Below are positions 5,851 to 35,638 of a stretch of DNA of 64,000 nucleotides, piece after piece; within the stretch, counting starts at the first letter, position 1; every line of letters begins with the position of its first letter. The position numbers and the translations under genes were made by a program. The notes beneath the pieces are model-generated. The model was not told where the DNA came from. It did not search any database and was given only the letters and a program-made list of their open reading frames with translations. Origin of the DNA: Gloeophyllum trabeum ATCC 11539 (lineage: Eukaryota > Basidiomycota > Agaricomycetes > Gloeophyllales > Gloeophyllaceae); assembly GCF_000344685.1 (NCBI RefSeq), contig NW_006920422.1, positions 486,521 through 550,520 of the forward strand, read 5' to 3'.

Positions 5851-6191
5851 TCAGCACAGGCGGATGAACCTCCAATAAGTGCTGTTGGGGGGCTGATTCT
5901 ATCTGTTAGGCCCGTTCAATCAGGACGTGGTATGAGGGGCCTACCTCGTTAGTGCTGTTACTGACGTCTAGAAGGCATCGCATTCGAGTAAGTACCAAGT
6001 TCAATCCAAGCCACATTGACATGGATACACTTACGGTCAATCAAACACTCGTAAACAGCGACCTTCTTGTGGGTCTCCGACCACACGCTGCAAGTGGAGT
6101 TCTTCATCCAGCGGTGGTTTTCGGCCCAGATAGTGGTGAGCTTCTCGACACCGTTGGCTTGACGCGGTCCAGGGCTGATGACCTTCGACAT
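5851..6191 (-). CDS. small CBM5/12-like protein, pair 1
   Basis: A 73-residue protein from three exons: 6191-6035 (157 nt, 52 codons plus one base), 5967-5945 (23 nt) and 5892-5851 (42 nt). All borders are GT..AG. It starts MSKVISPGPRQANGVEKL. Then come W22 and W28 (with N31 where most siblings have G), STCSVWSE, YECLID, HVSNSTNE and PPNSTYWRFIRLC. The spacing of aromatic residues, and H-x-S followed by PP and YW, resembles compact chitin-binding CBM5/12 domains; this is my inference from pattern. There is no signal peptide, so it should be cytosolic. It is divergent from the APH gene at 6898, with 706 bp between start codons. A TATATAAG box lies about 120 bp upstream on this strand. Closest sibling in the window is the gene at 35297. 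Confidence 0.75.
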
Positions 6192-6897
6192 GATGGATGA
6201 CCGATGGTTAGTGGATCGTAAGACAGGCCGGTTTTGTTTTGTAGGAGGGTCGATGTGATGCGCCGCCGGGGCTAGAAGTTGTCGATGGGACTCTTCGTTG
6301 CAGAGGACCGTCTTATATACCTGCGGAAGACAAAGGAATGTTGTGGCAGGCAGGTTGTACGTAAGTGCATGAAGGCAGGGTGGCGCGAGTTGCTTCTGTG
6401 TGGCTTTGATGGATGATTGCTCCTGATGGGGACACAGGACACCGGCTGACGGACCAGGTGGGCTGATTCACGAAATTTTCTGGACGCGCTCATCCGTTCG
6501 GACGCTTTGTATCCCAATAAGGATAATGTTTCGTCTTCTCTCTAGGTTCAGGCCAAACTTCTCTCCATCTTTCCCTGATGGATGGGCAAACCATTCAGGC
6601 TCCATGCGAATTCATCAAACCGACACCCACAAATCCATGCACTCGCGCTTGGATGAGCAGTCCGGCCGCGTTGCTGTGGCACGAGCCACAAAGAAGACAC
6701 CCTTATCATATGGTCCATCAGCAAATCGCGGTCCAGATTCGGACGACCCTGACGCTTGGACGGATCTCCCGAGCCACTCGGCGATGCATGAGCGCCGGGT
6801 ACCCCAGGACCGAGCGTATAAAAGCGCCCTAAGGTCACTCTGTGGAGGTAACATCATCTACTCTATCCTGAGCCACCCATTGATACTTGCTGTAAAC
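6192..6897. promoter_or_regulatory. divergent promoter region of pair 1
   Basis: The region holds both promoters of pair 1. TATAAAAG at 6817-6824 lies about 80 bp upstream of the APH start. CTTATATA at 6312-6319 (TATATAAG on the minus strand) lies about 120 bp upstream of the small-gene start. No coding frame here is convincing. Confidence 0.6.
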
Positions 6898-8209
6898 ATG
6901 TCGGAGTTCGTCGAAAACGGAGTCAAGATCCATGTCATCCTCGCCAAGCTCGGCGACCACTTTGGAGATCCCGTCGGTGAAATCGAAAGGGGACCGCGAG
7001 GTGCGTACAATATAAATCAGGTACTGATTTTCACCGATTGAGCGGTTTGTGATAGGGAGTCATCATATGGTCAGTCCTCCTGACGATGAATCTGCGTTGC
7101 GGGTCATTCATACATTGATTTCAGACGTACATCGTCACCCAGGAAAGTGGCACCAAACGACTCCTTAGAGTCAGTTACCCCGTCTTTAAAGACTTCGGTT
7201 CTGGTATCGTGCCTCCCTCGAAGATGAAGTCTGAGGTAAGGATAGCGCAATGGAGACGGTAGTGTCGCTCACGTCTATGCGCTCAACAGATAGCGACGAT
7301 CAAGTATGTCCGAGAGCATACTAACATCCCCGTCCCGGAAGTCCTGCTTCACGACAGTGACGAAGATGGGAGCGTCGGAGCTGAATGGATGGTTATGGAA
7401 TACGTGCGCATCACCTTCCTACTTGCACCTAGAGGGGGCATCTGAGAAAATATCAGGTGAACAGCCTCCCGCTCTCGCAGATGTGGTTCTCGATGTCGGA
7501 AGATCAACGCCAAGGCGCTGTTCAGGGCATCGCAGGCGTCTTCCACCAACTCCTCGGTCTCAGGTTCGACAAGATCGGCAGCCTATACGAGAACGAAGAA
7601 GCAAAGATCCACGTCGGTCCGATGACCTTTATGCCCTCGAACAACACACGCGACACGGCTCCTCCCAATCCGGCGAAGTGCGGGCCCTTTGAGTCTATCA
7701 AGCAGTGGCTCCTGGCTCTTGCTGCCGGAGACCTCAACTTCGAGTCGACGAACGTTGACGAGCCCGTGGAGGCTGAGCGCAGGGCAGCCGTTATAGAGGA
7801 CATCACTTCCACCACAATATTTGAAGACGAGTCCTTGAAGGAATTCTGCGCCATCGTCTTGGAGCACGTCGACCTCAAGGTCAACAACTTCCTGGTCGAT
7901 CCCGAGGATCCCACCAAGATACTAGGCGTCATCGACTGGGAGGGTGCGAGGACCGTGCCCTTGTTCGCCATCCAGCCCCGGTGGTACACTCCCCTGGGGA
8001 CCCCGCCCGAATGCATCTCTTCTGAGGAGGTGACAAAACTGCAGGTGTCTACTCGTGAAGCCGTCCAGACGCTCTCCCCTGCGTGGTATTCCTCTACCGA
8101 GGATCCTGGCCGTGCTTTGCGAGAGGTGTTGCATCGGGCGATCCACAGTCGGTTGGATCCGGAGATGTTCGACTTCGAGTCCATGGACTGCTGGCATCGG
8201 GGGGCGTGA
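6898..8209 (+). CDS. APH-fold kinase-like protein, pair 1
   Basis: Five exons give about 364 residues: 6898-7000, 7056-7069 (a 14-nt micro-exon completing GSHHM), 7125-7235, 7290-7403 and 7457-8209. The protein has the aminoglycoside/choline phosphotransferase (APH) fold. The N-lobe has an SGTKRLLRVSYP strand, PPSKMKSE-IATIKYVREHT, IPVPEVL and the hinge EWMVMEY. The C-lobe has the catalytic loop EHVDLKVNN (H-x-D-x4-N) and the metal-binding VIDWEGA. All expected catalytic residues are present, so it could transfer phosphate to a small hydroxylated substrate, but the substrate is unknown. Arg sits at the usual N-lobe lysine position (VRV), as in its siblings. It is divergent from the small gene at 5851-6191 and closest to the APH at 33309-34643. 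Confidence 0.85.
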
Positions 8210-10739: not shown

Positions 10740-10883
10740 GCTCTGGAGGGCTTGTACGATGCACTGAGTCCACGTTTTCGGGGGTCAGACGATCCCGAGG
10801 CTTATCATCGGGACATGCTCCTGGTTGATCAGGTCGACTACAACCGGGTGAAGAAGTGGGCGGGTAAGAATCTGGATGAATGA
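10740..10883 (+). pseudogene. possible coding relic or isolated exon
   Basis: A 47-codon open frame follows an in-frame TAA and ends at TGA 10881. It reads protein-like: ALEGLYDALSPRFRG, DDPEAYHRDMLLVDQVDYN, RVKKWAGKNLDE. The composition is that of a globular soluble protein, but no start codon or confident splice partner is visible. I do not recognise the family. It could be the last exon of a decayed gene inside the gene-poor region, or chance. Confidence 0.3.
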
Positions 10884-14340: not shown

Positions 14341-15719
14341 ATGCTGAGTAAATACCACTCGGCGCGCTGGATCGACCAACGGGTGCTACAGGACCGGATC
14401 AGTGACGCTTTGTCTGAGCCCTGCGAGGAGCTCGAGAAGTTCTCGGGGCCAAGTTTCTCAGAAGTTTCACGTCGGTCTACTCGTGATCCGGGCTTAGGTA
14501 GGCATCACGCGGTAGGTTGCCATTACCCCGCCTAGGTACTGTACTGATTTTCCTGCCGTAGACGCTCATCGCCACGATGGCAAGTGGCACGAAGAGATTT
14601 GTCAGAGTTCACTATCTAGTCATAAAGGAGGAAGGATACCTATACGGTGCTTCTCACACCCTTAAGATGTCCTCTGAAGTGAGCACATCACCATCCTTTC
14701 TGTGGCAGTGAGAAACGAGTACCTCCTCCTGTTGTTATCCAGATAGCCACAATGATGTTTGTCCGGCGAAACACTCGAATACCCGTACCGGACGTATTTG
14801 CCTATGACCCTGACGAAGACGGTGCCGTGGGCGGCGAGTGGATGGTCACAGAATATGTGAGTAGGCATACTGTAGTACCGCCGGCTACCTTTCCATGCGA
14901 CCTTCCTTCCAGATTGATGGCGTGCCACTGGACAACCTTTGGCCCGGAATGACCAGGAGAGAACGCCGTCGCGCCGTCCTCTCTATGGCGCATATCTTCG
15001 CTCAGCTCCTGAGGCTTCGGTTCGATCATATTGGCAGCTTGTATGAATCTGATGACGACGGGCACTTCGAAGTCGGCCCCATGGCCTTCCTCCCATCCCA
15101 CGAGAAGAAGGTTCCCCCGAATGAGCACATGTGTGGACGCTTTCACTCGCCACGGGAGTGGCTGCTGGCTCTTGCACGAGGTGATCTGGATTACCGACCA
15201 AGTGGCGACCTGTGGGCTCCAGTCAAACACACCAAGGAGATTGTACAGAAGATAGCCTCCGACCCATTTATCCGCGATGGGACTTCGGACCCAATGTGTG
15301 CAATCGCTCTGCAGCACATCGATTTCAACATTTTCAATATCATGGTTGACCCCGACGACTCTGCGGTCATTCGCGGCGTTATCGATTGGGAGGGGGCTAG
15401 GACCGTCCCTCTTTATGCCATTCAGCCGGTGTTCTTCGTCGATTGGGACGGCGAACAAACGCTGATGAGTGAAGAGGAAGAGAGAGCGTATCAGTGGATG
15501 GCTCGTGTGACGATAGCGAAGAAAGTTCCCAGTTGGTTCGAGGCGACAGGAGATCCTGGGACTCCGTTACGGAAATTGCTGATGCTCGCTTCGCATGGAG
15601 ACTTGGAGGAATTCGATTATCGGGACGCCTTGCATCAAGGTCGTGCACCGCCAGAGGATTCACATCTGGATCTTTCGGCTTCTGAGGATGAAACTGCAGT
15701 CTCTGGCGAAGATTTGTAA
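14341..15719 (+). CDS. APH-fold kinase-like protein without a partner
   Basis: Four exons give about 402 residues: 14341-14511, 14562-14678, 14743-14856 and 14913-15719. The first exon encodes MLSKYHSARWIDQRVLQDRI and runs directly into GRHHA. That segment corresponds to the separate GSHHM/K micro-exon of the sibling genes, so the intron in front of it is absent here. The catalytic loop is QHIDFNIFN and the metal site VIDWEGA. The N-lobe is unusual: after FVRVHY it reads LVIKEEGYLYGASHTLKMSSE, where siblings have a Pro-x4-RFG/DFG-S/AG segment. The C-terminus carries an acidic serine-rich tail (SASEDETAVSGEDL) that the others lack. It is the most diverged of the five APH genes. It looks intact; the substrate is unknown. 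Confidence 0.82.
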
Positions 15720-16123: not shown

Positions 16124-17707
16124 TTGCGGATCTCCTCCGACTGTCCAGGATTTCTGGATGACGATTATATCCAACGCAATGGTGGTTGGGTCGTCGTATC
16201 GCATCCGTTGCAAAGCTGTTTGCCACCCTTGAAGGTCTGGTTCTTGAACAGAAGGGCTTCTTGTCCTGATAGGTTACCCCCTTCGGTGCGTTTTAACCTT
16301 ATTCCCAGGGAGGATCCGGTTGAGAAGTACTTTCCCGGCTTGCAATATCAGCTCGAAGGTTTCGACCCCAAATTCAAGTCCCAACCGTCTTCTTTGACAC
16401 TGTTTCAGCTAGCCACCCATATGTCAGGACTAGGGAGAGACTGGCCGGGAAGTCTCCGAGGAGGTGGTCCTCCCCCGACTAATGGGCACCGTTTTCCCTC
16501 CCACGAAGCTCTGTTCGAAGAAATCAAGACTATCAAGCCAGTCTCGCCTCCATGGACATACCCTTCGTATTCCAACACTGGAATCGGCCTGTTAAGGCTT
16601 TCATTGGTCCAAGCGAATCGAGTCGCCAGCAAGCTTGAGAAGGAGCCTGCAACGTATGCGGAGCTTCTCAAGCGCGATATATTCGACCCGCTTGGCATGA
16701 ATCACAGCCATTTCCTTGCGACGGAGCATAACAAACGGATCATAACAAACGGATCATTGCAGTTCCTTCGATCGCTCCCGAAGTTGTTGTAAGCACAGTC
16801 CACAGCCTTCTCGTCCTGATCTCGGGAAACTAAGCTCTACTGAAGGACCAAGACTTTCTGAACGCGATGAACGCTGCGGGGGGCCAGTTCTCATCCCTTT
16901 CGGATTTGATAGTCGTCGTCGAGACCCTGCTTAATCCTGCATATCCTAATAGCTTGCTGAGAAGGCACACTCCTGATAACTGGCTCCGTCCGGTGCACGA
17001 CTTTGAAGAGTATGATTGGACCCAGGTGGGGTTCACTTGAGAAATAGTCAAGACTCGGGATTCATACGGACGGACACGGAAGATATACTGGAAATGTGCG
17101 CGTTTCTTCTATGCCTCCCGATTCCGCGATCCTTCTAAACATGCATTGTTCAGTGGGAGCTATGGACGGTTATCATTCTGCTTTAGCTATTCATCCCGGC
17201 ACAAGCTTCGGTATCGTCGTTCTCATGGCTGGCCGCTACCCCGATGCTGCACAGCTAGCGTATGATGCCTTTGAGATTATGCAGCCGGGTATAGATAAGG
17301 CACTCACCGACTTGGCAAGCGCCCTCTATGTCAGTATATGGTTGAGTCAAGGTAGAAATAGCGGTGCCATCATTACGGTGCAGAAGGGGACCTTGGACAT
17401 GGAGCATCTGACTCTGAACGGAACCGACACTTTCGCCACCCTGCACGTATCACGCAGACCGACTCTCCAATCGAGCCAACCGCGGGATGAATTCAGGTAT
17501 GTATGCAGTATCTTTACTCTAACATGGTCCTGACATAACCAATTTATTGAATATCAGATTGGACGGATTCTACAACGGGAAGAAACATATGGGCTGTTAC
17601 CCTTATTGGAACGTTCAGGACAACTGGGCCATGCGAAACGTTGCTCCCAGCAATTTTTTAACTTCACTGGAGAGGGATAGCAACGGCTCTCCATGTACCC
17701 TCTGTTG
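16124..17707 (+). pseudogene. class C beta-lactamase/transpeptidase-like pseudogene
   Basis: Fragments match the fungal serine beta-lactamase-related family in order. They include ASVAK (SxxK motif, 16201-16215), YSNTG (YxN motif, about 16568), AAGGQFSSLSDLI, and IHPGTSFGIVVLMAG (third motif, about 17190), then an exon with NGKKHMGCYPYWN. Damage is clear. The frame shifts between SSYRI and ASVAK. The 14-bp unit CATAACAAACGGAT is repeated in tandem at 16727-16754, which breaks the frame after ATEHNKRII. A TGA at 17038-17040 interrupts GFT-EIVK. Family members hydrolyse esters or amides and are often secreted; this copy should make no active enzyme. The 5' end is not clear and could lie before 16124. 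Confidence 0.8.
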
Positions 17708-20187: not shown

Positions 20188-23100
20188 ATGAAGGCCAACT
20201 ACAAGGTGTGCTCGTCCAGAGTCTATATATTCTGTGCAGGGGAACTGAAGGATGTGTCTTGGATAGCTCTCTAATGTCCTTGGGACTGTTTACCGGCAGG
20301 GAAATATCGTTTTCACGCCAGATGGGAATTCGGTGCTGAGTCCGGTCGGGAATCGCGTTTCGGTGTTTGACCTCGTGAAGTGAGTAGATGCTTTCTATAC
20401 GGAGAGGTTTTTGGCATTCTGGGTTCTGGGTGTTGGCAGTAGGGACATGGGTGGTATGGTGTGCGGGTCGTCGAGCCCCTCTGTCCCAGCGGGGTCTTGA
20501 CTGGTACGGGGTACACCGAAGGATGCAGGGGTGGCTTGGTCAGCCGGGGTTTGCCATTTCTCATGCATTGAGTACACGTCTACCTGCTGGTACACGAGCC
20601 ACTCGTTGGTATGGGTGTAACGCGGGCAGAGGTGGTATATCCCGGCAAGGCCTAATTCTCAACCTAGTTGCACGTCCTCCTCCGGTCTTCTGCAGCGTCT
20701 AACATGTACTGCATAGCAACAAGTCATTCACGTTTCCATTCGAGAACCGCAAGAATATTGCCGCCATTGCCCTTAGCCCTGACTCGAATGTCCTCATATC
20801 CATTGACGAAGGTGAGCTGAGTGATATCCTCCCGGATACATTGATTTATCTTTTTTAGATGGACGAGCTTTGCTGGTGAACTACCGAAGGAGGGTAGTCC
20901 TTCATCACTTCAATTTCCACAGACCAGTCAAAGCCGTGAAGTTCTCACCGGATGGAAAGTACGCAGATGTATCCCTTGCTCGCGATTCTATGATTAACCG
21001 ACCGGTTCCAGATATATTGCCGTTACCCATGATTCGCACGTGCAAGTGTGGCGGACGCCCAACCACCTTGTGCGAGAGTTTGCACCCTTTGTGCTGCACA
21101 GGACATACACGGGCCATCACGACGAAGTCCTGAGCATCGAATGGTCTCCCGACTCAAAGTACATGTAGTTGATCCTGGTAATGTGTCTGTGACTAACGCT
21201 TTATCTTCTGTAAGGTGTTTCATTACTACATCCCGCGATATGACGGCGCGGCTATTCACTCTGGACCCACTTGAAGGGTTCAGACCCAAAACGTTCGCTG
21301 GCCACCGAGACGCCATCGTGGCTGCATACTTCTCGTCCGACGGTGATCATGTGAGCTGTAGGCCCTGTTTAACTCAATCTGTTTCTGACATCCCTTAAGA
21401 TATACACCGTCAGTCGAGACGGTGCTGTGTTCACGTGGAAGGCCAAGACGCCCGAAGACATGGGGGACAGCGACGACGAGCAGCCGGGCGAGTCCTCTAA
21501 ATCCACGCTAGACGCTAACAAGATCGCCAACACCCGGTGGGGCGTCTCCAAGCGGCACTACTTCAATCAGGCGCACACTAAAGTCGTCTGCGCCACCTTC
21601 CACGCGCCCTCCTCGATGCTCGTCGTCGGCTTCTCGACGGGCGTCTTTGGCCTCTGGGAGCTGCCCGCCTTTACCAACATCCACACCCTGTCGATCTCGA
21701 ACGAGAAGATCTCCTCCGTCGCGATCAACCCCTCGGGCGAGTGGCTCGCGTTCGGCGCAAAGAAGCTCGGACAGCTGCTCGTGTGGGAGTGGCAGAGCGA
21801 GAGCTACGTGCTCAAGCAGCAGGGCCACTTCTTCGACATGAACGCGCTCGCGTACTCGGGCGACGGCCAGCACATCGCGACGGGCGGCGACGACGGGAAG
21901 GTCAAGGTGTGGAACACGACGAGCGGGTTCTGCTTTGTCACGTTCGCCGAGCACTCGGCCGCGGTGAGCGCGGTCGAGTTCGCGCGCGGCGGGCAGCAGG
22001 TGCTCTACTCGGCGTCGCTCGACGGGACCGTGCGCGCGTTCGACCTCGTGCGCTACCGCAACTTCCGCGTGTTCACGTCGCCGCAACCCGTGCAGTTCTC
22101 GTGCCTGGCGGTCGACCCGAGCGGCGAGGTCGTCGCGGCGGGCTCGACGGACTCGTTCGAGGTCTTCCTGTGGTCCGTGCAGACGGGGAAGCTGCTCGAC
22201 GTGCTGGCGGGGCACGAGGGCCCGGTGAGCTCGCTCGCGTTCGAGCCTGGCGGGGGTAATGTTCTCGCGAGCGGGAGCTGGGACAAGAGCATACGCCTGT
22301 GGAATGTCTTTGCGCGGTCGAGGAACGTGGAGCCGTTCCAGCTAAACTCTGACGTGCTGTCTGTCGCGTTCCGGCCCGACGGGAAGGAGCTCGCGGCGGC
22401 GACGCTTGATGGGCAGATCACGTTCTTCGACGTCGCGCAGGGCAAGCAGACGACGATCATCGAAGGCAGGAAGGACATCTCAGGGGGTCGGAAGGCGGAC
22501 GACCGTGTCAGCGCGGCTAATAATGCGTCGGGCAAGTCGTTCAATAGCCTTGCATACACCGCGGATGGCAGGTGCCTGCTTGCTGGGGGCAACAGCAAGT
22601 ACGTGGTGCTGTACGATGTGCAGGAGGGTGTCATGCTCAAGAAATTCCAAATTTCGGAGAACTTGTCTCTGGACGGCACGGAAGAGTTCCTGGATAGCAG
22701 GAGAGTCAACGACGCGGGGATCAACGTGGATCTCATCGATGACAGAGGGGACGAGAGCGATCTGCAAGACAGGCTGGAGAATTATAACACTCTTCCTGGC
22801 GCCCAGAGGGGAGATCTGTCCAAACGACGGTACCGACCGGAAGCGCGCACGAAATGCATTCGCTTCGCACCCACTGGGCGGGCATGGGCGGCAGCATCCA
22901 CTGAAGGCCTGCTGATTTACTCTGTCGACGACAACGTTGCGTTCGACCCCTTCGACCTCGACATTGAGCTCACGCCACAGTCTATCATCAGTGTGCTCTC
23001 CAATAAGGAGTTCCTCAAGGCTCTCGTCATGGCGTTTCGGTTAAACGAGAGCCCCTTGATATCTCGGGTATACGAATCCATACCTTCGAGGGATATCCGG

Positions 23101-23476
23101 TTCATCGCGAAAGCTCTGCCCGTCGTTTACCTGGAACGCATGCTGCGCTTCATCGCGGACAGGATGGACCAGAATAGCCCGCACTTGGAGTTTGAGTTAA
23201 CATGGGCAAGGGCGATACTGGGTGCGCATGGCCGAGTCCTCAGGGATAGGAGCATGGAATATGCTAGCGTTCTTCGGGGGCTGCAGAAGGGACTGGGAGA
23301 GTTTGAGACGGTGGTGGCAAAACTGTGAGTGCATTGTTGCGTTGCTCTCCCTCTCATGCCTAACTGACAAAACGCCCAGATGCGACCAAAACACGTCGAC
23401 TCTGCAGTATCTCATTGACCAATCTCGTATGCGGGCAAATCAGGAACATGTCTCTGATATAACCATGACCAGCTAG
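20188..23476 (+). CDS. PWP2: PWP2/UTP1, U3 snoRNP WD40 protein
   Basis: Periodic tryptophan protein 2, a core of the UTP-B subcomplex of the small-subunit processome, needed in the nucleolus for 18S rRNA maturation. Exon 1 is MKANYK (20188-20205), followed by LSNVLGTVYRQGNIVFTPDG. Later exons have NNKSFTFPFENRKNIAAIAL, LVNYRRRVVLHHFNFHRPV, THDSHVQVWRTPNHLVREFA and SRDMTARLFTLDPLEGF. The largest exon runs from about 21400 to 23325 and has repeated WD40 blades (for example GGDDGKVKVWN, ASLDGTVRAFD, GSWDKSIRLWN). It ends in a Utp12-type region (ISVLSNKEFLKALVMAFRLN). A final exon gives CDQNTSTLQYLIDQSRMRAN and stops at 23476. About 900 residues, usual for the family. No defects seen. Confidence 0.95.
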
Positions 23477-23643
23477 TTGTTGCAAAGTGTACGATTGCTC
23501 GTACGAGTGCTACCATAATCTCAAAGGGTGCTCTGTGATACGACAGCACCAACAACGCAGCGGTATAGTTGTATCTGTCATCCCAACGGTATGCCAGTGG
23601 TCATACGAACCCATTAAACTTATGTTAATACATCGCTTCTGTA

Positions 23644-24933: not shown

Positions 24934-25412
24934 GACACTTTGTGTTCTCGAGTAGAGTCTAAGAGTGGGAGATGTGTTTGGACTCATTTAACTGGGAGAA
25001 GGGTATCACATAGCCTGAGCCACACGGGTAGTCAGGGTCGCCGGGATAATGCTTCCGATGATCCGAATATTGATGCGGCATCTTCTTGAACTTAGAATCA
25101 GTGGAAGGATGTGGCCAGCCCTCCCAAAGCTCCCTCCGAAAACCGATGGTTCGGGAGGTTTGAGACGGAAAACCTATCATGGCCGAACGGAGTTCCAGGT
25201 CGTTGAGGAGATGTATGGCATCGAGAAGAACGGTCCATGACAAGGTATTCTTTTGCCTTCAGGACACGACCCTGCATGCTTCTATGATGCATCAATTATT
25301 CACGGAACACAGAGAAGACCTACGACTGTGGGTACAAACCACATTTCCTCATATAAGAGCATGGCCTGGCTATTCGATTCGCAAGTTCACTCGACTTTCT
25401 ATCGCACGTTAA
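24934..25412. promoter_or_regulatory. divergent promoter region of pair 2
   Basis: The small gene on the plus strand has CATATAAG at about 25350, about 60 bp upstream of its start. A block at 25014-25080 (CCTGAGCCACAC..CGCCGGGATA..CCGATGATCCGA..TTGATGCG) is also found in the pair 3 intergenic region at 29275-29340. It is non-coding in both, so it is a candidate shared control element or simply residual duplication. Confidence 0.55.
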
Positions 25413-25735
25413 ATGTCTCAGAGTTCGTCTCAAGCACAACGACAAGGCCCTGGGGGCACCACCAAGCGATGGGAAATAGGGATTACCTGGGAACAGGGCT
25501 CGTACTGTGGCGTATACGACCCAGCCACAAAGCGAGTCACTACTTATTACTGTAGATTGGAACGTAAGTCTGCCTCGGTTGCTTCTCCCAACTGCCAGCT
25601 GAGCTGAACTTAACACCTCCAGACAAGTCTTCCCCCCAAACTCAGGTAATACTTCCCGTCGTAAAGAATTCAGAACACTGACCCCTCCACTAGCCCCCGA
25701 ACAATGTATACTGGGAAATATACAGCGTCAACTAG
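25413..25735 (+). CDS. small CBM5/12-like protein, pair 2
   Basis: A 71-residue protein from exons 25413-25563 (151 nt), 25623-25645 (23 nt) and 25694-25735 (42 nt). It starts MSQSSSQAQRQGPGGTTKRW. W20, W26 and G29 keep the family spacing, followed by SYCGVYDPATKRV, YYCRLE, HKSSPQTQ and PPNNVYWEIYSVN. Cysteines at the SYC and YYC positions are shared with most siblings. No signal peptide or membrane segment. The GPGGTT leader and the WEIYS.N ending define subtype B, shared with the gene at 29726; its divergent APH partner is also the subtype-B form. Confidence 0.75.
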
Positions 25736-26415
25736 GAGGCGCACTATGCATGCCTGAAAGGTAAGGAAGCCACCTGTGTTTCGAAATCGCGACTCACAAG
25801 GGGCAACAGTCAGTCCTAATGACATCGTCATCTCCATTCGTTTTAGTCTATCTTCACGAGTTGCCTGAGTTTCCTTAATTCATGTACCGGCACGATATCT
25901 GTACACTCCTTAATGTAGCGTTACTTCATGTAGGCCACCGCTCGGATCCAATTTACTCGTCGTTCTCCAGACTGATTAGCATCGACTCGAAGGCCCTTAA
26001 GATGATTAATTTAAGGGCCGAGACGCTGTATAATTCCTAATATTGGGGTCCATTACGTGGGAGAGAGAAGAGACCGGCTTGCAGAAGTAGCTCGCTGATG
26101 GTCGCCTTAAATTGCTGTCCCAACGAGGACACTGCTGAGAGGCAGGCGTAGATGCTACACGCTGCTACTCGAAACTCGAAAGGTACTACAATGCGAGAGC
26201 GCCGTGGTATGGTCGTATACACCATTAGCGGTATGCTAATCATGATGGCCACTGGCACACGAACTTATTGGACTCATGTTGATACATCGCTTCTGTACTA
26301 CATTATCACACCTTGCAGGAGCTGGTCGACGTATTCATAATCCGACTCAGGAAAGTTGAACGGGCTCCACTCTGCTCTTCTCAGCAAGTGCCTGAGACTT
26401 AGCCCCTCCTCCCCT
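25495..26415. repeat. left copy of 921-bp gap-edge duplication
   Basis: This stretch appears base for base again at 27079-27999, directly after the N-gap. It covers most of the small gene of pair 2, the following non-coding DNA and the last part of an APH gene on the minus strand. In this copy the APH frame is cut at 26415, where the sequence changes, so only about the last 40 codons (ending QLLQGVIM) are present. An uncollapsed overlap between two contigs is the simplest explanation. Confidence 0.85.
26283..26415 (-). pseudogene. 3' fragment of APH gene (gap-edge copy)
   Basis: It encodes the C-terminal segment LSLRHLLRRAEWSPFNFPES and onward to QLLQGVIM, identical to the end of the complete gene at 27882-29192. 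Upstream the frame runs into unrelated sequence (26416-26637). It is probably not a separate gene but a duplicate made during assembly. Confidence 0.7.
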
Positions 26416-26637
26416 CGTGGCCAAAACGTTCAGAGTCTACACACGAACAGCGAGACAGGAAAATGTGGACCGGTAAGAGTGACTCCAGTGGCAAATGCAG
26501 TCGTAATGTGATTGGACGCCACAGGACTGGGCACTCACACGTGCCGAAGGTGTCAACGCCGATGATGCACATTTTGGGCCGTGTGGCGGCCTCGCCTGCC
26601 ACAAAATAGGAGCAGCATAACTCCGAGGCAGACTAGC

Positions 26638-27078
26638 NNNNNNNNNNNNNNNNNNNNNNNNNNNNNNNNNNNNNNNNNNNNNNNNNNNNNNNNNNNNNNN
26701 NNNNNNNNNNNNNNNNNNNNNNNNNNNNNNNNNNNNNNNNNNNNNNNNNNNNNNNNNNNNNNNNNNNNNNNNNNNNNNNNNNNNNNNNNNNNNNNNNNNN
26801 NNNNNNNNNNNNNNNNNNNNNNNNNNNNNNNNNNNNNNNNNNNNNNNNNNNNNNNNNNNNNNNNNNNNNNNNNNNNNNNNNNNNNNNNNNNNNNNNNNNN
26901 NNNNNNNNNNNNNNNNNNNNNNNNNNNNNNNNNNNNNNNNNNNNNNNNNNNNNNNNNNNNNNNNNNNNNNNNNNNNNNNNNNNNNNNNNNNNNNNNNNNN
27001 NNNNNNNNNNNNNNNNNNNNNNNNNNNNNNNNNNNNNNNNNNNNNNNNNNNNNNNNNNNNNNNNNNNNNNNNNNNNNN
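26638..27078. other. assembly gap (441 N)
   Basis: A run of N. The duplicated flanks suggest the true gap may be zero or negative in size. The 222 bp before it (26416-26637) match nothing else in the window. Confidence 0.95.
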
Positions 27079-27319
27079 AGGGCTCGTACTGTGGCGTATA
27101 CGACCCAGCCACAAAGCGAGTCACTACTTATTACTGTAGATTGGAACGTAAGTCTGCCTCGGTTGCTTCTCCCAACTGCCAGCTGAGCTGAACTTAACAC
27201 CTCCAGACAAGTCTTCCCCCCAAACTCAGGTAATACTTCCCGTCGTAAAGAATTCAGAACACTGACCCCTCCACTAGCCCCCGAACAATGTATACTGGGA
27301 AATATACAGCGTCAACTAG
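27079..27319 (+). pseudogene. 5'-truncated copy of small CBM-like gene (gap edge)
   Basis: Identical to positions 25495-25735. It holds the end of exon 1 from the GSYCGVYD region, then exon 2 (27207-27229) and exon 3 (27278-27319). The 5' part is lost in the N-gap. Either a second complete gene lies in the gap or, more likely, this is the same locus assembled twice. Confidence 0.75.
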
Positions 27320-27881
27320 GAGGCGCACTATGCATGCCTGAAAGGTAAGGAAGCCACCTGTGTTTCGAAATCGCGACTCACAAGGGGCAACAGTCAGTCC
27401 TAATGACATCGTCATCTCCATTCGTTTTAGTCTATCTTCACGAGTTGCCTGAGTTTCCTTAATTCATGTACCGGCACGATATCTGTACACTCCTTAATGT
27501 AGCGTTACTTCATGTAGGCCACCGCTCGGATCCAATTTACTCGTCGTTCTCCAGACTGATTAGCATCGACTCGAAGGCCCTTAAGATGATTAATTTAAGG
27601 GCCGAGACGCTGTATAATTCCTAATATTGGGGTCCATTACGTGGGAGAGAGAAGAGACCGGCTTGCAGAAGTAGCTCGCTGATGGTCGCCTTAAATTGCT
27701 GTCCCAACGAGGACACTGCTGAGAGGCAGGCGTAGATGCTACACGCTGCTACTCGAAACTCGAAAGGTACTACAATGCGAGAGCGCCGTGGTATGGTCGT
27801 ATACACCATTAGCGGTATGCTAATCATGATGGCCACTGGCACACGAACTTATTGGACTCATGTTGATACATCGCTTCTGTA

Positions 27882-29192
27882 CTACATTATCACACCTTGC
27901 AGGAGCTGGTCGACGTATTCATAATCCGACTCAGGAAAGTTGAACGGGCTCCACTCTGCTCTTCTCAGCAAGTGCCTGAGACTTAGCCCCTCCTCCCCTG
28001 TGGCGCGGAGCCACATAGGCACTCGTTCGCCGATGGCTCTACGAGTGAGCAACTGCAGATCTCGTACCTCCTCATCGGATGCTTCCTCTAGATGGGCGAA
28101 GAAATGAGGTTGAATCGCCCACAGCGGAACTGTCCGAGCACCCTCCCAATCGAGAACGGCTACAATGCGAGTCGGATCACTGTGGTCGACGAGGATATTG
28201 CTCACGTTCATGTCGATGTGGTGTAAGGCGATGTTGGATATCTCCAGCTCGGCTGCTGCCTCGAGTCGTGGGTTGGAAAGCAGCTCTTCTACGACTTTGT
28301 CGATAGGTGCACGCTCTTCGGCGGTGCACACTGTTGCTTGAGAAAAATCGAGGTGCCTAGCAGCTACAGCCAGAAGCCAATCTTTGGGGCTGTCAAACGG
28401 GCCGCAATGCGAAGGATCCGGGGGTGTTATATCCCTGCTGTTATTAGAAGGCAAGCAGGTCATAGGCCCGACAGAGAAGTCGTCTTTGCCATCTTCCTGA
28501 AGGCTCCCAATTTGATTGAAACTGAGGCGAAGAAGATCAGCCCAGACATCCGCAACAGATTCCACGATCTTGTGACGCTGAGCATCGGATGTGGTAGCCC
28601 ACGCCTTGATCAAGGGGATTCCATGCACCTGACGGTTTCATACGCTAAGTTCGAACCGCTAGTAGTCAAACCCCTAGAGACGCACATATTCCATGACCAT
28701 CCATTCGCCGCCCACGCCTCCATCACTGTCTGCATCATATGCTACGATGTCGGGAACTGGGATCTCAGTATGTTTCCTTACAAACTTGATGGTGGCGATC
28801 TTAAACAAAGTAAGCCACTCGTTGCAAGCAAAATGGGACATATGATTTACCTCTGAGGGCATCTTCGTCGCCGGAGACAAACCTGCCCCAAATCGTTTGT
28901 AATATGGGAAATGGACTCGCACGAATATCTCCTTTCCGCTCTCCAAAGTTGCAATGAAGGTCTACAGTTGTTGCAGGTTAGGCGGGCTACCATCGTAAGT
29001 GTAGACAGAATCATACTTTATGGTGACTCCCTGGGTCGTCCGTATCTTAGCTGGATACAGCTTTCGAAACGGTGCCGGCTTACCTTGGACGAATTCTTGC
29101 ATCGCCTTAACATTTTCACCAAGTTGCTTGGCAAGCCTCTTGGAAAGCTCCTCCGGGCGTATCGCTGTGACAACTTCGAGTTCCGTAGACAT
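27882..29192 (-). CDS. APH-fold kinase-like protein, pair 3
   Basis: Five exons in the same arrangement as pair 2. The start at 29192 gives MSTELEVVTAIRPEELSKRL. The 14-nt micro-exon again completes GSHHK. Then come TFIATLESGKEIFVRVHFP, KMPSE, IATIKFVRKHTEIPVPDIV and EWMVMEY. The last exon has the catalytic loop HHIDMNVSN and VLDWEGA. The PPDPSHCGPFDSPKDWLLAV block and DEEVRDLQLLTRRAIGER are shared with the pair 2 protein. All key APH residues are present. Divergent from the small gene at 29726 with about 530 bp between starts. An upstream methionine (29207) adds five residues and cannot be excluded. Confidence 0.85.
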
Positions 29193-29725
29193 AGCGGGTG
29201 TTCTCAAGTAGAATTCGAGAGCGCAAGTGTTAGGTTAGAGTGGGAGTATTTAACTCGACAGAAGTGCCACTTGACCTGAGCCACACAGGCCGTCAGGTCC
29301 GCCGGGATACTGATCCCGATGATCCGACATGTTGATGCGAAGCCCCCTTGCGGTGAACATCGGATTCGCACCTTGACTAAGGTGTGGCTGCACCCTTCAC
29401 CAGGTTCGCCCCGAAAGCGGGAAAAGTGATGGGGGAGATTTGTCAGTAGAAAGTTTACCTATATTCATCTTTTCATATTCGAATTCCAGAACACCAATGA
29501 GGAGTGTAGCATAAAGTTCCGGGTTACACCTTCGACCTTATTCCTTTGTACTGCGACCCTGCATCCTTCTGATGCATCAGCTTGTCCGCCGTAGTTGGTA
29601 ATACTTCCTTGGCGGACAATTGAGGCTCAAGGCCTCAAGGGCGTAAGCCACCATCCTCCGCCGTAAAATCGGATGAACACTTGCCAGTGGTCCAGTAATT
29701 CGCTCACTCTTCCAGACCCCGCTAG
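29193..29725. promoter_or_regulatory. divergent promoter region of pair 3
   Basis: Contains the block shared with pair 2 (29275-29340) and, just beside it, a second shared stretch, AGAGTGGGAG followed by TTTAAC, at about 29235-29255 (also at about 24961-24995). No coding frame is supported. Confidence 0.55.
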
Positions 29726-30054
29726 ATGTCTGAGGGAACTGTGCCCGCACAACCTGGAGGCCCCGGCGGCACTACCAGGCAGTGGCGGAAGGGACTTCGG
29801 TGGGCTGTTGGCTCGTATTGTGGGACGTTCAACCCTGTCACCAAGAAAACCACCACTTACAAATGTCTAGTCGAACGTGAGTCCATATCAGGTGCTTTCA
29901 GAGCTCACCCGACAACGCTTAATTTCTTGTCACCAGACGTCAGTGGTCCGGACACTGCGGTAAGGGTCTTCTACCATAGAGAGTTCAGATTGCTGATTCA
30001 TAAGCCCGTTAGCCCCCGAATGATGTTTACTGGGAGATTTATAGCATCAATTAG
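29726..30054 (+). CDS. small CBM5/12-like protein, pair 3
   Basis: A 71-residue protein from exons 29726-29876 (151 nt), 29937-29959 (23 nt) and 30013-30054 (42 nt). It starts MSEGTVPAQPGGPGGTTRQW. W20, W26 and G29 are kept, then SYCGTFNPVTKKTTTYKC, LVE, HVSGPDTA and PPNDVYWEIYSIN. Subtype B, nearest to the gene at 25413. No signal peptide. Head-to-head with the APH gene at 27882-29192. The intron phases (1, then 0) equal those of all siblings. Confidence 0.75.
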
Positions 30055-32722
30055 GGCCGCACGCGTCAGACAGTGCAAGGTGAGGGACCTACTCATAAGT
30101 GGCAAATAGTCTGACTCACGTCTTACAAAATAGTTTGAATCCCGTCCTTCGTTCCGTTTCGTGAGCATATTTTGTCCAAGAGTCTTCTGAGTTTTCCCTA
30201 TATCATGTACCGGCATCACATCTGTACTCTCCTTAATGTAGCCTTGTGTCATGTAGACCACCTCGTGAATGCATTTTTGCTGGTCGTTTCCCAGACTCAG
30301 TCAATTCTGATTTTTAAGATAATCAATGACGATACTTCGTATCCCGGAAATCACCAGCAGGAACGCGGTCCCCTCGCCAGTCCACTTACCTTCAGGTCTA
30401 GGAATGAGGAAGGAATGAGAAACACCACGGAAATAGTCTTGAGGAACAGTGGAAATTTAAAGCACCTTCATGACACGACCGCTCTCACTCACCAGTAAAA
30501 CGCATCCATACGTGGTATGCCTATGCTTGTCTTCAGCATACGGAACTGACCGGCGCCGAAACGCATATATGTATAGTATAGTCCCTGCCTTTGCTTTACC
30601 TTACGAAGGAGGGAGAAGGAATCGGCTGAAGCAGGTGGCTGATTCCTGGCCGCAGTGAATGTCCGTATCAATAAGAGCGCCGAAAGGAAGGACGATATTT
30701 CGTGCATGCGGGCGCCATTCTCGGACTGCTTTAGTTCTATCTCGCGGCAGATGATAGCGGAAGAAGCAAAGCGCACAGGCAGGCATAAGCAAGAATAAGT
30801 GGGGGTGTAAAGGAATTACTGGTGCTAGATTTTTCGCCGCCCGTTCGTAGCGAAGAGGGGCCGGACCAGAGAGTCTTCACTTGGCATCGACTCGCGCACA
30901 TACCGACATCGCTGTCCTATCCTACGTCGTCCAACACTGCCAAACCAACTCAACGTATTCTTTATCAGCCGCCTCACTGCCACTGGCAGGGCCTGTCTTC
31001 TGCTATTCAGGATCCTGAGTTACCCTCAAATCATGCTTCAAGTTATCGGAGTCGCGTCGCCGCGTGTCGCGACGCGGAAGGCCTTGATGTTCCAAGAGAA
31101 TTATCATCCAGAGTCCAGATTAGCTTCGAGAATCGGCATGTTGTAGGGCGACATAGTAAGAGGTCTACAGGCAGAGGTAATTTTGCTGGCAGTAGACACT
31201 GGCAGCCAGGCGCGCAACGAATGGCAATCACTCGGAATGAACCGGTCTGAGTCTTCATGCTCGGAGTCGACCGGAAGAGTACGCATCCCTGTTCACGAAA
31301 AGCACAGCAGCGTGCCCTAGCAATGCCTGCGCTCAGTGGGCAGTATGTCGAGGTAACTCGGTCTCCAAGGTCTGCATCACTCACGAATCAGATCTAAACT
31401 AGCTCGTCCATCCCTCCATTTCTCAGGACCTGTTTCAGGTATCTTCATGACCCCTCGCCACCGGTAGGCTTCTGTGTTACGCTACATGCGGAGACAGTAC
31501 TCGGAAATTGTCAAGAATTGAAGGGGGAAATCACATGTACGGCCTTGCCGCCCCCGCTTGCTTCCAGGATAAGAAATGGGATGACTACAAAGGTGTTCTC
31601 CTAGGTGAAATCAGGCAAACAACAGACCACATATCCGTTTGGGATACCTCCTGCTTTGGGTCGAACTCACTAGGACGATGCTTTCACCAGGAGCAGTCAA
31701 TGATCGCGGTACCAGATGTGATGTCACACGACGGGCCAACCCAGTCGGGCCGTAACTTCAAAGTCGTCGACGGACTTAAGTTAATGCATCACTGAATGAC
31801 AAGGAAATCCTCTATACTCCCCATCTACTGGCTTCCGCTCAGTTCTCGGACCAGGTCAGTACACGCGTATGGCTCAGGCAGACACCATAGCCTATCAGTT
31901 GTGATGTGCGTTCGCCGTGCTCTCCAAGCCGAAAGATGGTCCAGTCACACCTTCTGTGTCGCTCGTCTATCTTAAGCTTACGCGTCGTCTAGGGAGTTGA
32001 AATCACTTCAACCCGAAGCCAGGGGGAGGACTTGAGCATGGTCAGGAAGCGGAAAATACTGGATATGCCTATCTTCGCACTCGATGAGTAAGAGAAGTGG
32101 GGGAAAATGTGCCAATATAATTTGCTGAGTTCGCACCCGCTCAAGGCCTCGCAGGACATATCCTGGTGAGTTGTATGCCCATTAGGATCACATATTCATA
32201 TATTGCTTCGACCCTGATTCGAAACAGTGGTCGTGCGCTATAGGCGTGCCTCGCCAAATACATGGACCCGAAAAGAAGCTCGTCAACAAGTGCATCAGCA
32301 TGCAAGTACATACGTCCCTTCCCATATCACATTCAGTATGTTTGATCTCCCTCTGGGGTCCTCGTCAACTTTGCACCCGATATGGGCCGATGCTCCTGAT
32401 TGATTCGAAGCACCGGTCCGAAGACCCTTCTGAGCCACACTTCCAGCCCTGAGATACGAGCAGCCCGAGCCCGAACCCGGCGTTGGTCGAATGCTGGGAT
32501 TGGAAAGCCTCTTATTCACAGATTTGACCGACTTCACTTTTGGCGAAGGGCAATTGATTCTTCGATCCGATATCTGAACTTACAGCCGGTTCGATTGTTG
32601 ATGCGACATAGCAGGCAAGTTAAATAGAGGCGGGTTTGTAGCCCTTCACGATCAAAGCCTCAATCAACTGTCCCTCTTCCGGCGCCTCTCACTCTATCCT
32701 CACTCTATCCTACGCCTGCATC
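30055..32722. other. gene-poor region in the APH cluster
   Basis: About 2.7 kb with no supported gene. I searched the minus strand for an APH partner of the small gene at 32723 and found no catalytic loop or DWEGA motif. Open frames at 30822-31250, 31043-31384 (-) and 31508-31795 have no family likeness. Confidence 0.5.
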
Positions 32723-33079
32723 ATGTCGTCTTCAAGGCATCAAGCCCTTCAGCGCGAACCTCTTTCGGACTCAGAGGTCATAGATACTAGCAGCGAGGAA
32801 GATATCCCGGATCCTTGGCGCATGGGAAGGAAATATGATACCAGGTCCACTTGTTCCATCGTCTCCGTGACCTTGAAGACAGTGGTGATATACGAGTGCA
32901 TTAAAGCTCGTGCGTCTTTCTGCCCTATATCGTTCTACACGTAGGTTCTCATAAGGACTTGCAGATACGAGCACTACCGAGAAAAGGGTATGCTGTCTTG
33001 CTATGTCCCACACCGATTTTCTGACATGCCTTTCCAGCCGCCCAGCCCCGTTTATTGGAGGGTGTCTGAGCTCTTATAG
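32723..33079 (+). CDS. diverged small CBM5/12-like protein, no partner
   Basis: An 83-residue protein from exons 32723-32909 (187 nt), 32965-32987 (23 nt) and 33038-33079 (42 nt). The exon 2 and exon 3 lengths are exactly those of the other small genes. The N-terminus is longer and acidic (SDSEVIDTSSEEDIPDP). The family core follows: W32, Y38, STCSIVSV, IYECIKA, HTSTTEKR and PPSPVYWRVSELL. The glycine at the +9 position is R. It is not head-to-head with an APH gene; the next APH (33309-34643) points towards its 3' end. It may be a paralogue that lost its partner or works on its own. Confidence 0.68.
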
Positions 33080-33308
33080 CATCTCCCGTGGCGTCGAGCT
33101 TGGTTCGGACCCTCCGGAGCGATTGGATGTAGTCAATCTGTCGGATATTATTCCGCATGCTAATGGCATTCACGCCTTTCCCTACCGTACCTTTGCACCT
33201 CAAATCAGCCACATGAGAATATGCATACTTGATTCCAAATCGGCCACAGTCGGACAGCAACAGATAAGACAGATATGCCATGTGTGAATATAGCTACACT
33301 ACCAGAAT

Positions 33309-34643
33309 TCATGGATCCGTACCAGCTGGCGGTATACCGCGCTGGTACACATCCGTACCTTCGAAGCTGAACACAACGGGGTCCCACCGACTGTACATAG
33401 CACGGTGTAACACCTCTCTCAGGCTACGCCCCTGGTCATCCGTAGCGGCAAACCAGACCGGGTCGAGGGATCGCACAGCCGCACGAGTATAGACTTGCAT
33501 CTCGTTTTTCTCGTCCGAAGTAGCGTGTTGGATACCGAGGTACCACCGAGGTTGGATAGCGAAGAGGGGCACAGTCCTTGCACCTTCCCAGTCAATGACG
33601 CCGACGATGGCGGTGTGATCGTTGGGGTCCACCAGGATATTGTTAAGCTTGAGGTCGACGTGCTCCAAGGCAATAGCACAGAAGTCCTGCAGAGACTCAT
33701 CGTCGAATACGGTGGTAGCCTGGATGTCTTGTACGACAGCAGCCCTGCGTTCAGAGCCCTCTGACGTGTCAGTGTCGGAAGTCTCGAAATCCAGGTCGCC
33801 AGTGGCAAGAGCTAGGATCCACTGCTTAATAGACACGAAGGGGCCACACTTGGTGGAATCGGGGGGAGCAGTATGATGAGTGTTGTTGGAGGGCATGAAG
33901 GTCATTGGACCGACGGAAATCTCTCCCCCCTCGTTTTCTTGAAGACTGCCAATGTTGTTGAATCTGAGAGCGAGGAGTTGATGGAAAACGTTCGCGAGAG
34001 AATGGGCGACTGCGCGACGCGAGTCGCAAGACATGTCGGGCCATAGGTGGTAAAGGGATAAACCGTTGATCTGAGATTATTTTAGACACTGTCCTTCAAG
34101 GGGTACGAGCCGTCACTCACGAATTCCAAGACCATCCACTCAGCGCCTACGCTTCCATCTTCATCTCCGTCGTAATGCAGGACTTCTGGAACTGGGATAC
34201 GGGTGTGCTCTCGGACATACTTCATGGTTGCGACCTACGTCATGCGTTCACGGATTGCTTGAGTAACAGATACGCTTCCCTCACCTCAGATTTCATTTTC
34301 GACGGCGGCACAATACCAGAACCGTAATCTCGGAGAAACGGATAACTGACTCTAACGAGTCGCTTGATTCCACTTTCTAAAGTGACAATATACGTCTGGG
34401 ATAAGAAGATGAGGAAGTCGGCGAAGGACATCAGGTTGCTAGACCGACTTACCATATGATGGCTCCCTGCCAAAGGGATCACTTCTCTTCACCAATTGCT
34501 CGTCAATTGGACCAGAAATCAGACGCACCTTGCTTATGTCTCTCGACTGCGACGCAGGGATCTGAAAAGCGCTCGCTAATCTTATCGAGGACCAAGTACA
34601 TCTTGACTCCATTGTCAATGAACTCGTACGACTCTTCAGCCAT
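33309..34643 (-). CDS. APH-fold kinase-like protein, pair 4
   Basis: Five exons on the minus strand starting MAEESYEFIDNGVKMYLVLD at 34643. The micro-exon completes GSHHM (about 34454-34467). Then TYIVTLESGIKRLVRVSYP, PPSKMKSE, a VATMKYVREHT-type segment with IPVPEVL, and the last exon with LGLRF/LALRFNNIGSLQENE. Catalytic loop EHVDLKLNN and VIDWEGA are intact. The C-terminus ends ERG-type YQRGIPPAGTDP. It is most like the pair 1 protein (shared FIDNG/FVENG start, PPSKMKSE, CGPF.SIKQW, FDDESL.EFCAI). A TATATAAGG box lies about 70 bp upstream. Divergent from the small gene at 35297. Confidence 0.85.
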
Positions 34644-35296
34644 GATGATAAGTATAGCTGAGGGTGGCTCAGTGAAGACCGACTTGTGGGACTTCATGAT
34701 ATTCCGAAGGACCTTATATACCGATAGTGCTCGGGAGCCACACGGAAGCACTAATAACCGGTGGTTCGGTCACGCCCAAGTGCATGCGGGGTCCTACCCC
34801 GTATCAACACGAGACAAAGCGCTTATGTAACCACAGGTGTCTTCTTTGTGGCCATTGCCACAACTGACCCTTCGATACCATGCTGTCGGTTGGCAGGCGA
34901 AACGCGCTGCGTGTGTTAGAGAAGTGTGTTCTCGATAGTATCTGACTTCTCACCTCAACTCATCAGCGAGATTCGATGAGTAAATCCAGAGGGACCGCTT
35001 GGGGTTATCCTGGCCAATTCAAAAATAATGCTTGCGGCCTGGAGATATCAACGCGGCCTCGGATCACATCTTTGGCTATATACAGCCCTGTATTGGTTCT
35101 CCCGAGAGCGACCCTGAAGGATGTAGATTCCTCCCGCCATCAACCATCAAATCCACAGAAGGCATAACCACACCTACTTCTCCGATTTTGTGGCCTTTTT
35201 TACGTATGCCTCGCCTCAAAAGTGCCCTCCTTTGTCCTCGTCAGCATATAAGGAGCTCGGATCCATACGATACCACATTCAATCCAACATACCACC
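34644..35296. promoter_or_regulatory. divergent promoter region of pair 4
   Basis: Contains minus-strand TATATAAGG (about 34712-34720) for the APH gene and CATATAAGG (about 35245-35253) for the small gene, about 50 bp before its start. No coding frame is supported. Confidence 0.6.
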
Positions 35297-35638
35297 ATGA
35301 CCAAGACTGTTCACCCCGGACCCCGTCAGGCTAACGGCGTTGAAGAGATGACCATCATATGGGATAATGACATCCACTGGATGCAGGGTTCCACGTGCAG
35401 CCTGTGGTCGGTAGCGCACAACAAGGTAGCATGCTACGAATGCCTTGTGGAGCGTGAGTGGTCTTGCGTATTGACAATATTGATGGCTTACGACTCACTC
35501 AACTGTTGTTTCTTGATCATTCCAGACAAGAGCGCACCCAGCAATGCGGTAAGTGCTATCTATCTGCTTGTGGAGTGCATCTGACAGATACACCAGCCTC
35601 CAAACACGCGCTACTGGAAATTCATCCGTTTAGTCTGA
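35297..35638 (+). CDS. small CBM5/12-like protein, pair 4
   Basis: A 73-residue protein from exons 35297-35453 (157 nt), 35526-35548 (23 nt) and 35597-35638 (42 nt). It starts MTKTVHPGPRQANGVEEMTI. W22, W28 and G31 are present, then STCSLWSVAHNKV, CYECLVE, HKSAPSNA and PPNTRYWKFIRLV. The PGPRQANGVE leader and the FIRL ending define subtype A, shared with the pair 1 small gene. Its APH partner is the sibling of the pair 1 APH. No signal peptide, so it should act inside the cell. Confidence 0.77.

What the first reader, a model, noticed from the sequence alone, without database searches (positions are those of the whole stretch)
5851..35638. Four head-to-head cassettes of APH-like kinase and small CBM5/12-like protein, with matched subtypes
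Sequence shows four divergent pairs: 5851-6191/6898-8209, 23644-24933/25413-25735, 27882-29192/29726-30054 and 33309-34643/35297-35638. Subtype A small proteins (PGPRQANGVE leader, FIRL ending) go with the APH forms that have GSHHM and PPSKMKSE. Subtype B (GPGGTT leader, EIYS.N ending) goes with APH forms that have GSHHK and the HIDMNVSN loop. Matched subtypes imply that the two genes duplicate and diverge together, as for a protein and its partner, regulator or substrate. I know of no described system of this kind. A chitin-fragment- or sugar-sensing module, a substrate-delivery partner, or a heterokaryon or defence function are only guesses.
Basis: partly seen in the sequence, partly recalled or inferred. 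Interest (0 to 1): 0.9.

Follow-up and report, generated by a model that had tools for sequence, protein, structure and literature searches.

The report
Divergent kinase and sugar-binding-like gene pairs
A wood-rotting fungus carries four copies of a two-gene unit, a small-molecule kinase-like gene back to back with a tiny chitin-binding-like gene; the copies look like block duplications that still share a promoter signal, and whether the two proteins work together is untested.

Summary
In detail: four intact divergent pairs lie at the stated coordinates in what is Gloeophyllum trabeum; three APH models and one small-protein model equal public proteins exactly. The small proteins (71-73 aa) have a CBM5/12-like predicted fold but fail the Pfam threshold. 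"Matched subtypes" is weak evidence for partnership: pairs 2 and 3 are a tandem block copy and pairs 1 and 4 inverted copies, so linkage alone makes the trees agree. Pairing is not general: seven small genes and seven close APH genes were found in the genome, four of each paired. The conserved small gene (about 63 aa, in Polyporales) stands alone here, and outside Gloeophyllales no named species was in both hit lists. That word is short and was picked after looking. Best reading: a Gloeophyllales-local, block-duplicated, probably co-regulated gene pair of unknown substrate; passive linkage is a close rival. Pairing in other genomes could not be tested.

The parts
5851..6191 (-). small1, subtype A CBM5/12-like protein, 73 aa, exons 6035-6191, 5945-5967, 5851-5892
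   Evidence: spliced model; public model P0004 has a different 3' end, apparently reading through the last donor
6898..8209 (+). aph1, subtype A APH-like kinase, 364 aa, 5 exons
   Evidence: identical to P0008
23644..24933 (-). aph2, subtype B APH-like kinase, 356 aa, 5 exons
   Evidence: identical to P0009; Pfam APH E 4.1e-14
25413..25735 (+). small2, subtype B CBM5/12-like protein, 71 aa, 3 exons
27882..29192 (-). aph3, subtype B APH-like kinase, 364 aa, 5 exons
   Evidence: public model P0010 (333 aa) lacks exon 2 and most of exon 3
29726..30054 (+). small3, subtype B CBM5/12-like protein, 71 aa, 3 exons
   Evidence: identical to P0001; AlphaFold2 model and fold match
33309..34643 (-). aph4, subtype A APH-like kinase, 371 aa, 5 exons
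   Evidence: identical to P0007; Pfam APH E 2.5e-13
35297..35638 (+). small4, subtype A CBM5/12-like protein, 73 aa, 3 exons
32723..33079 (+). small7, fifth intact small gene, 83 aa, same 23-nt and 42-nt exons 2 and 3; no divergent APH partner found
14341..15719 (+). aph5, lone APH-like kinase of the same group, 402 aa, first intron absent in the model
6868..6876 (+). CTGAGCCAC in the aph1/small1 spacer
25015..25023 (+). CTGAGCCAC (as CTGAGCCACAC) in the aph2/small2 spacer
29276..29284 (+). CTGAGCCAC (as CTGAGCCACAC) in the aph3/small3 spacer
34664..34672 (-). CTGAGCCAC in the aph4/small4 spacer; a related GAGCCACA lies at 34735
32430..32438 (+). CTGAGCCAC (as CTGAGCCACAC) upstream of small7
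26638..27078 (.). N gap flanked by a 921-bp exact direct repeat (25495-26415 and 27079-27999); assembly duplication or very recent tandem copy

Best explanation
A divergent gene pair arose once in the Gloeophyllales lineage, when a duplicate of a conserved lone small gene came to lie back to back with a local APH-like kinase gene. The whole unit was then copied as a block: an old A/B split, then a tandem B copy and an inverted A copy. SHOWN: pairs, copies, purifying selection, retained kinase motifs, CBM5/12-like predicted fold, shared promoter word. INFERRED: single origin; co-expression of the two genes from a common control region; the APH-like enzyme phosphorylates a small hydroxylated or amino-bearing compound in the cytosol; the small protein, which shows no obvious N-terminal secretion signal by eye, binds a sugar-like ligand in the same response. 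Binding of the two proteins to each other is not needed and not shown.
For: Copies: direct repeats at about 4.2-kb spacing for 2/3 and inverted repeats for 1/4, with similarity beyond coding exons in 2/3. Trees: APH (1,4) 98/95 with Neolentinus P0011 as sister at 100/100, APH (2,3) 99/99; small (2,3) 99/98, small1+4+7 grouped 87/90. dN/dS 0.16 (aph1/4), 0.21 (aph2/3), 0.32 (small2/3), dS about 1 to 1.5; small1/4 saturated. H, D, N and D-W-E residues invariant in aph1-5. Fold: small; APH. Promoter: CTGAGCCAC occurs 6 times in the 64-kb window, 0.69 expected, 0 of 100 shuffles reached 6; 5 of the 6 lie in the four spacers or upstream of small7, the sixth in aph2 coding sequence. Chance that a random segment, read at the positions conserved in B, shares any 9-mer with the A set: 67 of 20000; with freely drawn 9-mers 0.14% of 5000. 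An 11-mer links both B spacers with the small7 upstream region. TGAGCCAC is in 0 of 5 1-kb stretches upstream of aph5, aph6, aph7, small5 and small6.
Against: 3 of 7 small genes and 3 of 7 close APH genes found are unpaired. No named species outside Gloeophyllales appears in both hit lists; both searches can miss unannotated genes. The promoter word was picked after looking; within each subtype it is shared by descent; at 8-mers sharing is uninformative (47% of random 500-bp segments hold some A 8-mer, 35% of 600-bp ones some B 8-mer), and at 9-mers 8.4% and 4.8% of random segments hold some A or B 9-mer. CTGAGCCACA occurs 108 times in the genome, control pattern 68. The small5 upstream stretch, lone, holds the shorter words AGCCACAC and CGACCCTG. 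The motif sits at different places and strands in A and B. No expression data were seen, and no paper on these genes was found.
Confidence: 0.47

Rival explanations
1. Passive linkage: an APH-rich, duplication-prone stretch of one contig happened to include a small-gene duplicate next to an APH gene, and later block copies carried both. The pairing has no functional meaning; each gene is kept for its own reasons.
For: All 7 small genes found lie in C13:469-597 kb and 6 of 7 close APH genes in C13:432-521 kb. Block copying explains the four pairs from one event. Unpaired intact members of both families exist. The conserved small gene is alone.
Against: All four pairs kept orientation and short spacers although A and B proteins share only 32-47% identity and synonymous sites between A and B are mostly saturated; a promoter word is kept in pairs and small7 but its core not in 5 other lone members.
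Confidence: 0.36
2. Protein-partner module: the small CBM5/12-like protein physically binds its own subtype of APH-like kinase, as regulator, substrate-delivery subunit or substrate, so the subtypes had to co-diverge.
For: Co-duplication and congruent subtypes; neither protein shows an obvious secretion signal by eye, so they could meet in the cytosol.
Against: No fusion among the 27 APH hits: a profile of the small family scores at best 3.4 bits, E 0.11, in them. Lone APH and lone small genes persist. Named species outside Gloeophyllales do not overlap. Congruence is expected from linkage alone. No complex prediction was made.
Confidence: 0.12
3. Artefact: part of the array is an assembly duplication.
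For: A 921-bp exact repeat flanks the N gap between pairs 2 and 3.
Against: The four pairs differ from each other (58-59% small and 64-69% APH amino-acid identity within subtypes), so they are not assembly copies; only the truncated pieces at 26301-26429 and 27081-27316 are suspect.
Confidence: 0.02

Closest known systems
CBM5/12 chitin-binding domains (e.g. those of chitinase A1, chitinase C, chitinase B, Vibrio chito-oligosaccharide deacetylase; that these domains are CBM5/12 is recalled)
APH-fold small-molecule kinases (aminoglycoside and macrolide phosphotransferases, PsiK, 25-hydroxysteroid kinase, FN3K)
   Different: 11-16% identity to those structures, and the top matches are tied, so the substrate cannot be read from the fold. 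By sequence profile the only PDB hit at E<=0.01 was 3dxp, E 0.0026.
The lone ~63-aa small6-type protein of Polyporales and Gloeophyllales (MPGLVSDATRIWE...)
   Same: Same family, shared W, C, H, PP and W positions.
   Different: The 8 full-coverage named Polyporales members are 60-79% identical to the Phlebiopsis one; the G. trabeum copy is unpaired and lacks TGAGCCAC in the 1 kb taken as upstream; no paper describing it turned up in the searches made.

Membership tests
CBM5/12 (Pfam PF02839) | Score above the family threshold | tested here: not met
   0 families at E<=1 for small1-4; 2 of 13 members list CBM_5_12, best E 0.047; precomputed domains are '-' for all 6 and all 31 listed homologs
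CBM5/12 (Pfam PF02839) | Compact three-strand chitin-binding fold | tested here: met
CBM5/12 (Pfam PF02839) | Exposed aromatic residues and chitin binding | not testable with these tools
   no coordinates were available for analysis and no assay
APH phosphotransferase family (PF01636) | Pfam score above curated cut-off | tested here: met
   aph2 53.4, aph4 50.8, aph5 42.1 bits against cut-off 23.2; aph1 and aph3 were not in that call, but the identical public protein P0008 of aph1 and P0010 of the aph3 gene carry PF01636
APH phosphotransferase family (PF01636) | Catalytic HxDxxxxN and metal-binding Asp | tested here: met
   H245, D247, N252, D268 invariant in aph1-5; in the 18-row A6, H245, N252 and D268 invariant and D247 nearly so. 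Calling them catalytic is recalled
APH phosphotransferase family (PF01636) | Phosphorylates a known small molecule | not testable with these tools
   no assay; fold matches to several enzyme classes tie
Conserved co-functional divergent gene pair | Pairing conserved across genomes beyond block duplication | not testable with these tools
   no other fungal genome held; only hint is the shared contig length 781007 for Heliocybe P0005 and P0013
Conserved co-functional divergent gene pair | Members are normally paired within the genome | tested here: not met
   4 of 7 small and 4 of 7 close APH genes found are paired
Conserved co-functional divergent gene pair | Shared control element | tested here: inconclusive
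   CTGAGCCAC in 4 of 4 spacers and upstream of small7, TGAGCCAC in 0 of 5 other lone members, but chosen post hoc, short, and small5 holds a shorter related word

The most novel reading that the evidence does not exclude
A previously undescribed fungal response module: a cytosolic, chitin-binding-fold mini-protein and a cognate APH-like kinase, expressed from one bidirectional promoter, together recognise and phosphorylate an amino-sugar-like compound (a competitor's antibiotic or a cell-wall fragment), with subtypes tuned to different ligands.
Probability: 0.15. Interest if true: 0.75.

Novelty: new variant of a known kind. Interest (0 to 1): 0.42.

Why it matters
If the pairing is functional it would give a first handle on the role of APH-like kinases in wood-decay fungi, whose substrates I recall as mostly unknown, and on a conserved mini-protein family with no Pfam match above threshold. 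Even if the pairing is passive, the conserved stand-alone CBM5/12-like protein of about 63 aa in Polyporales is a tractable unknown: a chitin-binding-type fold with no secretion signal that I could see by eye.

Tried and rejected
Considered and rejected: (a) matched subtypes as proof of partnership: linkage and block copying suffice. (b) Assembly artefact for the whole array: copies too divergent. (c) Missed partners of lone genes: profile searches of the window and eight fetched stretches of 9.9 kb found no small gene near aph5, aph6 or aph7 and no APH near small5 or small6; tblastn with small1-4 and aph2-5 (aph1 was not in that query file) agreed. For aph6 only about 1.3 kb upstream was held, for aph7 about 4 kb, for small6 about 5 kb each side. 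(d) A decayed APH left of small7: best tblastn E 0.015 with a stop inside, not credible. (e) A possible eighth small gene at C7:955 kb: has stops and scored 5.0 bits, E 6.3, by profile, dropped. (f) Fusion of the two domains: none in the 27 APH hits, tested with a profile of the small family.

Led nowhere: PDB search with profile A2 returned antibody light chains at E 0.00036 and up, read as a false match because the 13-row profile A7 did not list them. Papers: (search listings only; one search found none) gave nothing on the pair; PMC10512373 was looked at by passages only and its main text holds neither of the two locus numbers tried. Cross-genome pairing, complex prediction and co-expression could not be done.

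Caveats on counts: the APH homology search scored only the 7999 candidates sharing most words; own-genome counts are lower bounds by the tool's own note; small genes with 23-nt exons are probably under-annotated, so absence from protein lists is weak evidence. The aph6 row in the tree is a join of three six-frame pieces, not a full gene model. Assignment of species to Polyporales or other orders is recalled, except the lineage of Gloeophyllales.
Full report
WHAT IS THERE. The four divergent pairs are real. Gene structure is shared: each of the four small genes has a 23-nt second exon and a 42-nt third exon; each paired APH gene has a 14-nt second exon. Public proteins identify the organism as Gloeophyllum trabeum ATCC 11539: aph1, aph2, aph4 and small3 are letter for letter P0008, P0009, P0007 and P0001. 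Public models P0004 (small1) and P0010 (aph3) differ and look misannotated at splice sites.

An intact fifth small gene, small7, lies at 32723-33079 with the same exon 2 and 3 sizes; its end faces the end of aph4. A fifth APH, aph5, lies alone at 14341-15719. Outside the window, own-genome searches found small5 (C13:469 kb) and small6 (C13:597 kb), aph6 (C13:432 kb) and aph7 (C7:830 kb). Counting APH genes at 40% identity or more over the C-terminal part against aph4, seven were found; counting small genes with an intact reading, seven. Four of seven on each side are in divergent pairs. Around the others, tblastn and profile searches of the window and eight 9.9-kb stretches found no partner. 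More distant APH genes exist (29 exon-level matches to PF01636).

HOW THE COPIES AROSE. Pairs 2 and 3 are same-strand copies at a spacing of about 4.2 kb, with similarity extending to spacer and downstream DNA; pairs 1 and 4 are inverted copies at 75% over the longest arm (local blastn). Within subtypes, protein identity is 0.64 (aph1/4) and 0.69 (aph2/3), 0.59 (small1/4) and 0.58 (small2/3); between subtypes 0.41-0.47 for APH and 0.32-0.39 for small. dN/dS by a simple NG86 count is 0.16, 0.21 and, for small2/3, 0.32; other comparisons have saturated or near-saturated synonymous sites. Both families are constrained. The APH tree gives (aph1, aph4) 98/95 with Neolentinus P0011 as sister at 100/100, and (aph2, aph3) 99/99; aph5, aph6, aph7 and the two Heliocybe genes are unresolved. 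The small tree gives (small2, small3) 99/98 and small1, small4, small7 together at 87/90, with warnings of long branches. The trees agree, but because block copying moved both genes at once, agreement carries little information about partnership. Since Neolentinus holds an A-type APH, the A/B split is probably older than the Gloeophyllum-Neolentinus split (inference).

THE WIDER FAMILY. The second small-protein search listed 31 proteins, 14 with a species name: 3 from G. trabeum and 11 from Polyporales (order recalled); Heliocybe P0005 came from the first search. The 8 full-coverage named Polyporales members are 63 aa and 60-79% identical to the Phlebiopsis protein, and the Polyporales rows group with G. 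trabeum small6 and Heliocybe at 99/96. So the ancestral-type gene is probably the lone small6, and the paired members are faster-evolving local duplicates (inference). APH relatives: 27 proteins, 21 with a species name, 8 of them from Gloeophyllales and none from the Polyporales species just mentioned. Outside Gloeophyllales the two named species lists do not overlap; 17 and 6 proteins bear no species name. This argues against an obligate pair, but the searches are limited by annotation and candidate caps. Heliocybe P0005 (small) and P0013 (APH) are both listed with longest contig 781007, which suggests the same scaffold; their distance is unknown.

PROMOTER EVIDENCE. The four spacers share five distinct 8-mers and one 9-mer (counting strands once), against mean 0.00 in 100 mononucleotide shuffles, but sharing within subtypes is by descent. 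Controlling for that, random local segments read at the positions conserved in B shared any 9-mer with the A set in 67 of 20000 draws, and freely drawn 9-mers in 0.14% of 5000. Weaker controls: any A 9-mer occurs in 8.4% of random 500-bp segments and any B 9-mer in 4.8% of 600-bp segments; for 8-mers 47% and 35%, so the 8-mers say nothing. CTGAGCCAC occurs 6 times in the window (0.69 expected, 0 of 100 shuffles): four spacers, upstream of small7, and one in aph2 coding sequence. CTGAGCCACAC is shared by both B spacers and the small7 upstream region. TGAGCCAC was not found in 1 kb upstream of aph5, aph6, aph7, small5, small6 (0 of 5; start points of aph6 and small6 approximate), though small5 holds AGCCACAC and CGACCCTG. 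Genome-wide CTGAGCCACA occurs 108 times against 68 for the reversed control. I read this as suggestive of a shared control element, not proof.

VERDICT. A real arrangement, not described in the papers that the searches listed (listings seen, not whole papers), best read as a locally block-duplicated, probably co-regulated divergent gene pair in Gloeophyllales. Matched subtypes do not demonstrate a protein-partner system. The close rival is passive linkage.

Noticed in passing
window 25495-26415 and 27079-27999, N gap 26638-27078: A 921-bp exact direct repeat sits on both sides of an N gap, with truncated pieces of aph3 (26301-26429) and small2 (27081-27316); assembly duplication or a very recent tandem copy.
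   Followed up: partly
window 32723-33079: Intact fifth small gene, very divergent, end to end with aph4 and with the promoter word CTGAGCCACAC upstream.
   Followed up: yes
G000:C13:597.1-597.5 kb (L058) and Polyporales homologs P0034-P0041: A conserved, stand-alone CBM5/12-like protein family of about 63 aa with no Pfam hit above threshold; no paper on it turned up in the searches made.
   Followed up: partly
G000:C13:387-390 kb and 431-433 kb (L053, L054): More APH-like genes cluster here, including two end to end at 431-433 kb; the contig stretch 387-521 kb is rich in APH genes.
   Followed up: partly
window 6676-6689 and 34848-34861; 25285 and 29570: The A-type spacers share an inverted repeat GTGGC-N4-GCCAC preceded by the same stretch; the B-type spacers share the palindrome TGATGCATCA.
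   Followed up: partly
window 16124-16792, 21427-23328, 36089-37081: Neighbours: a beta-lactamase-family piece (PF00144), a WD40 protein with an Utp12 domain (PF04003), and a PLP-dependent enzyme (PF00291).
   Followed up: no
P0047 (Ganoderma boninense): A member of the small family carries the source name 'Type III effector protein', which looks like a mis-named automatic annotation.
   Followed up: no
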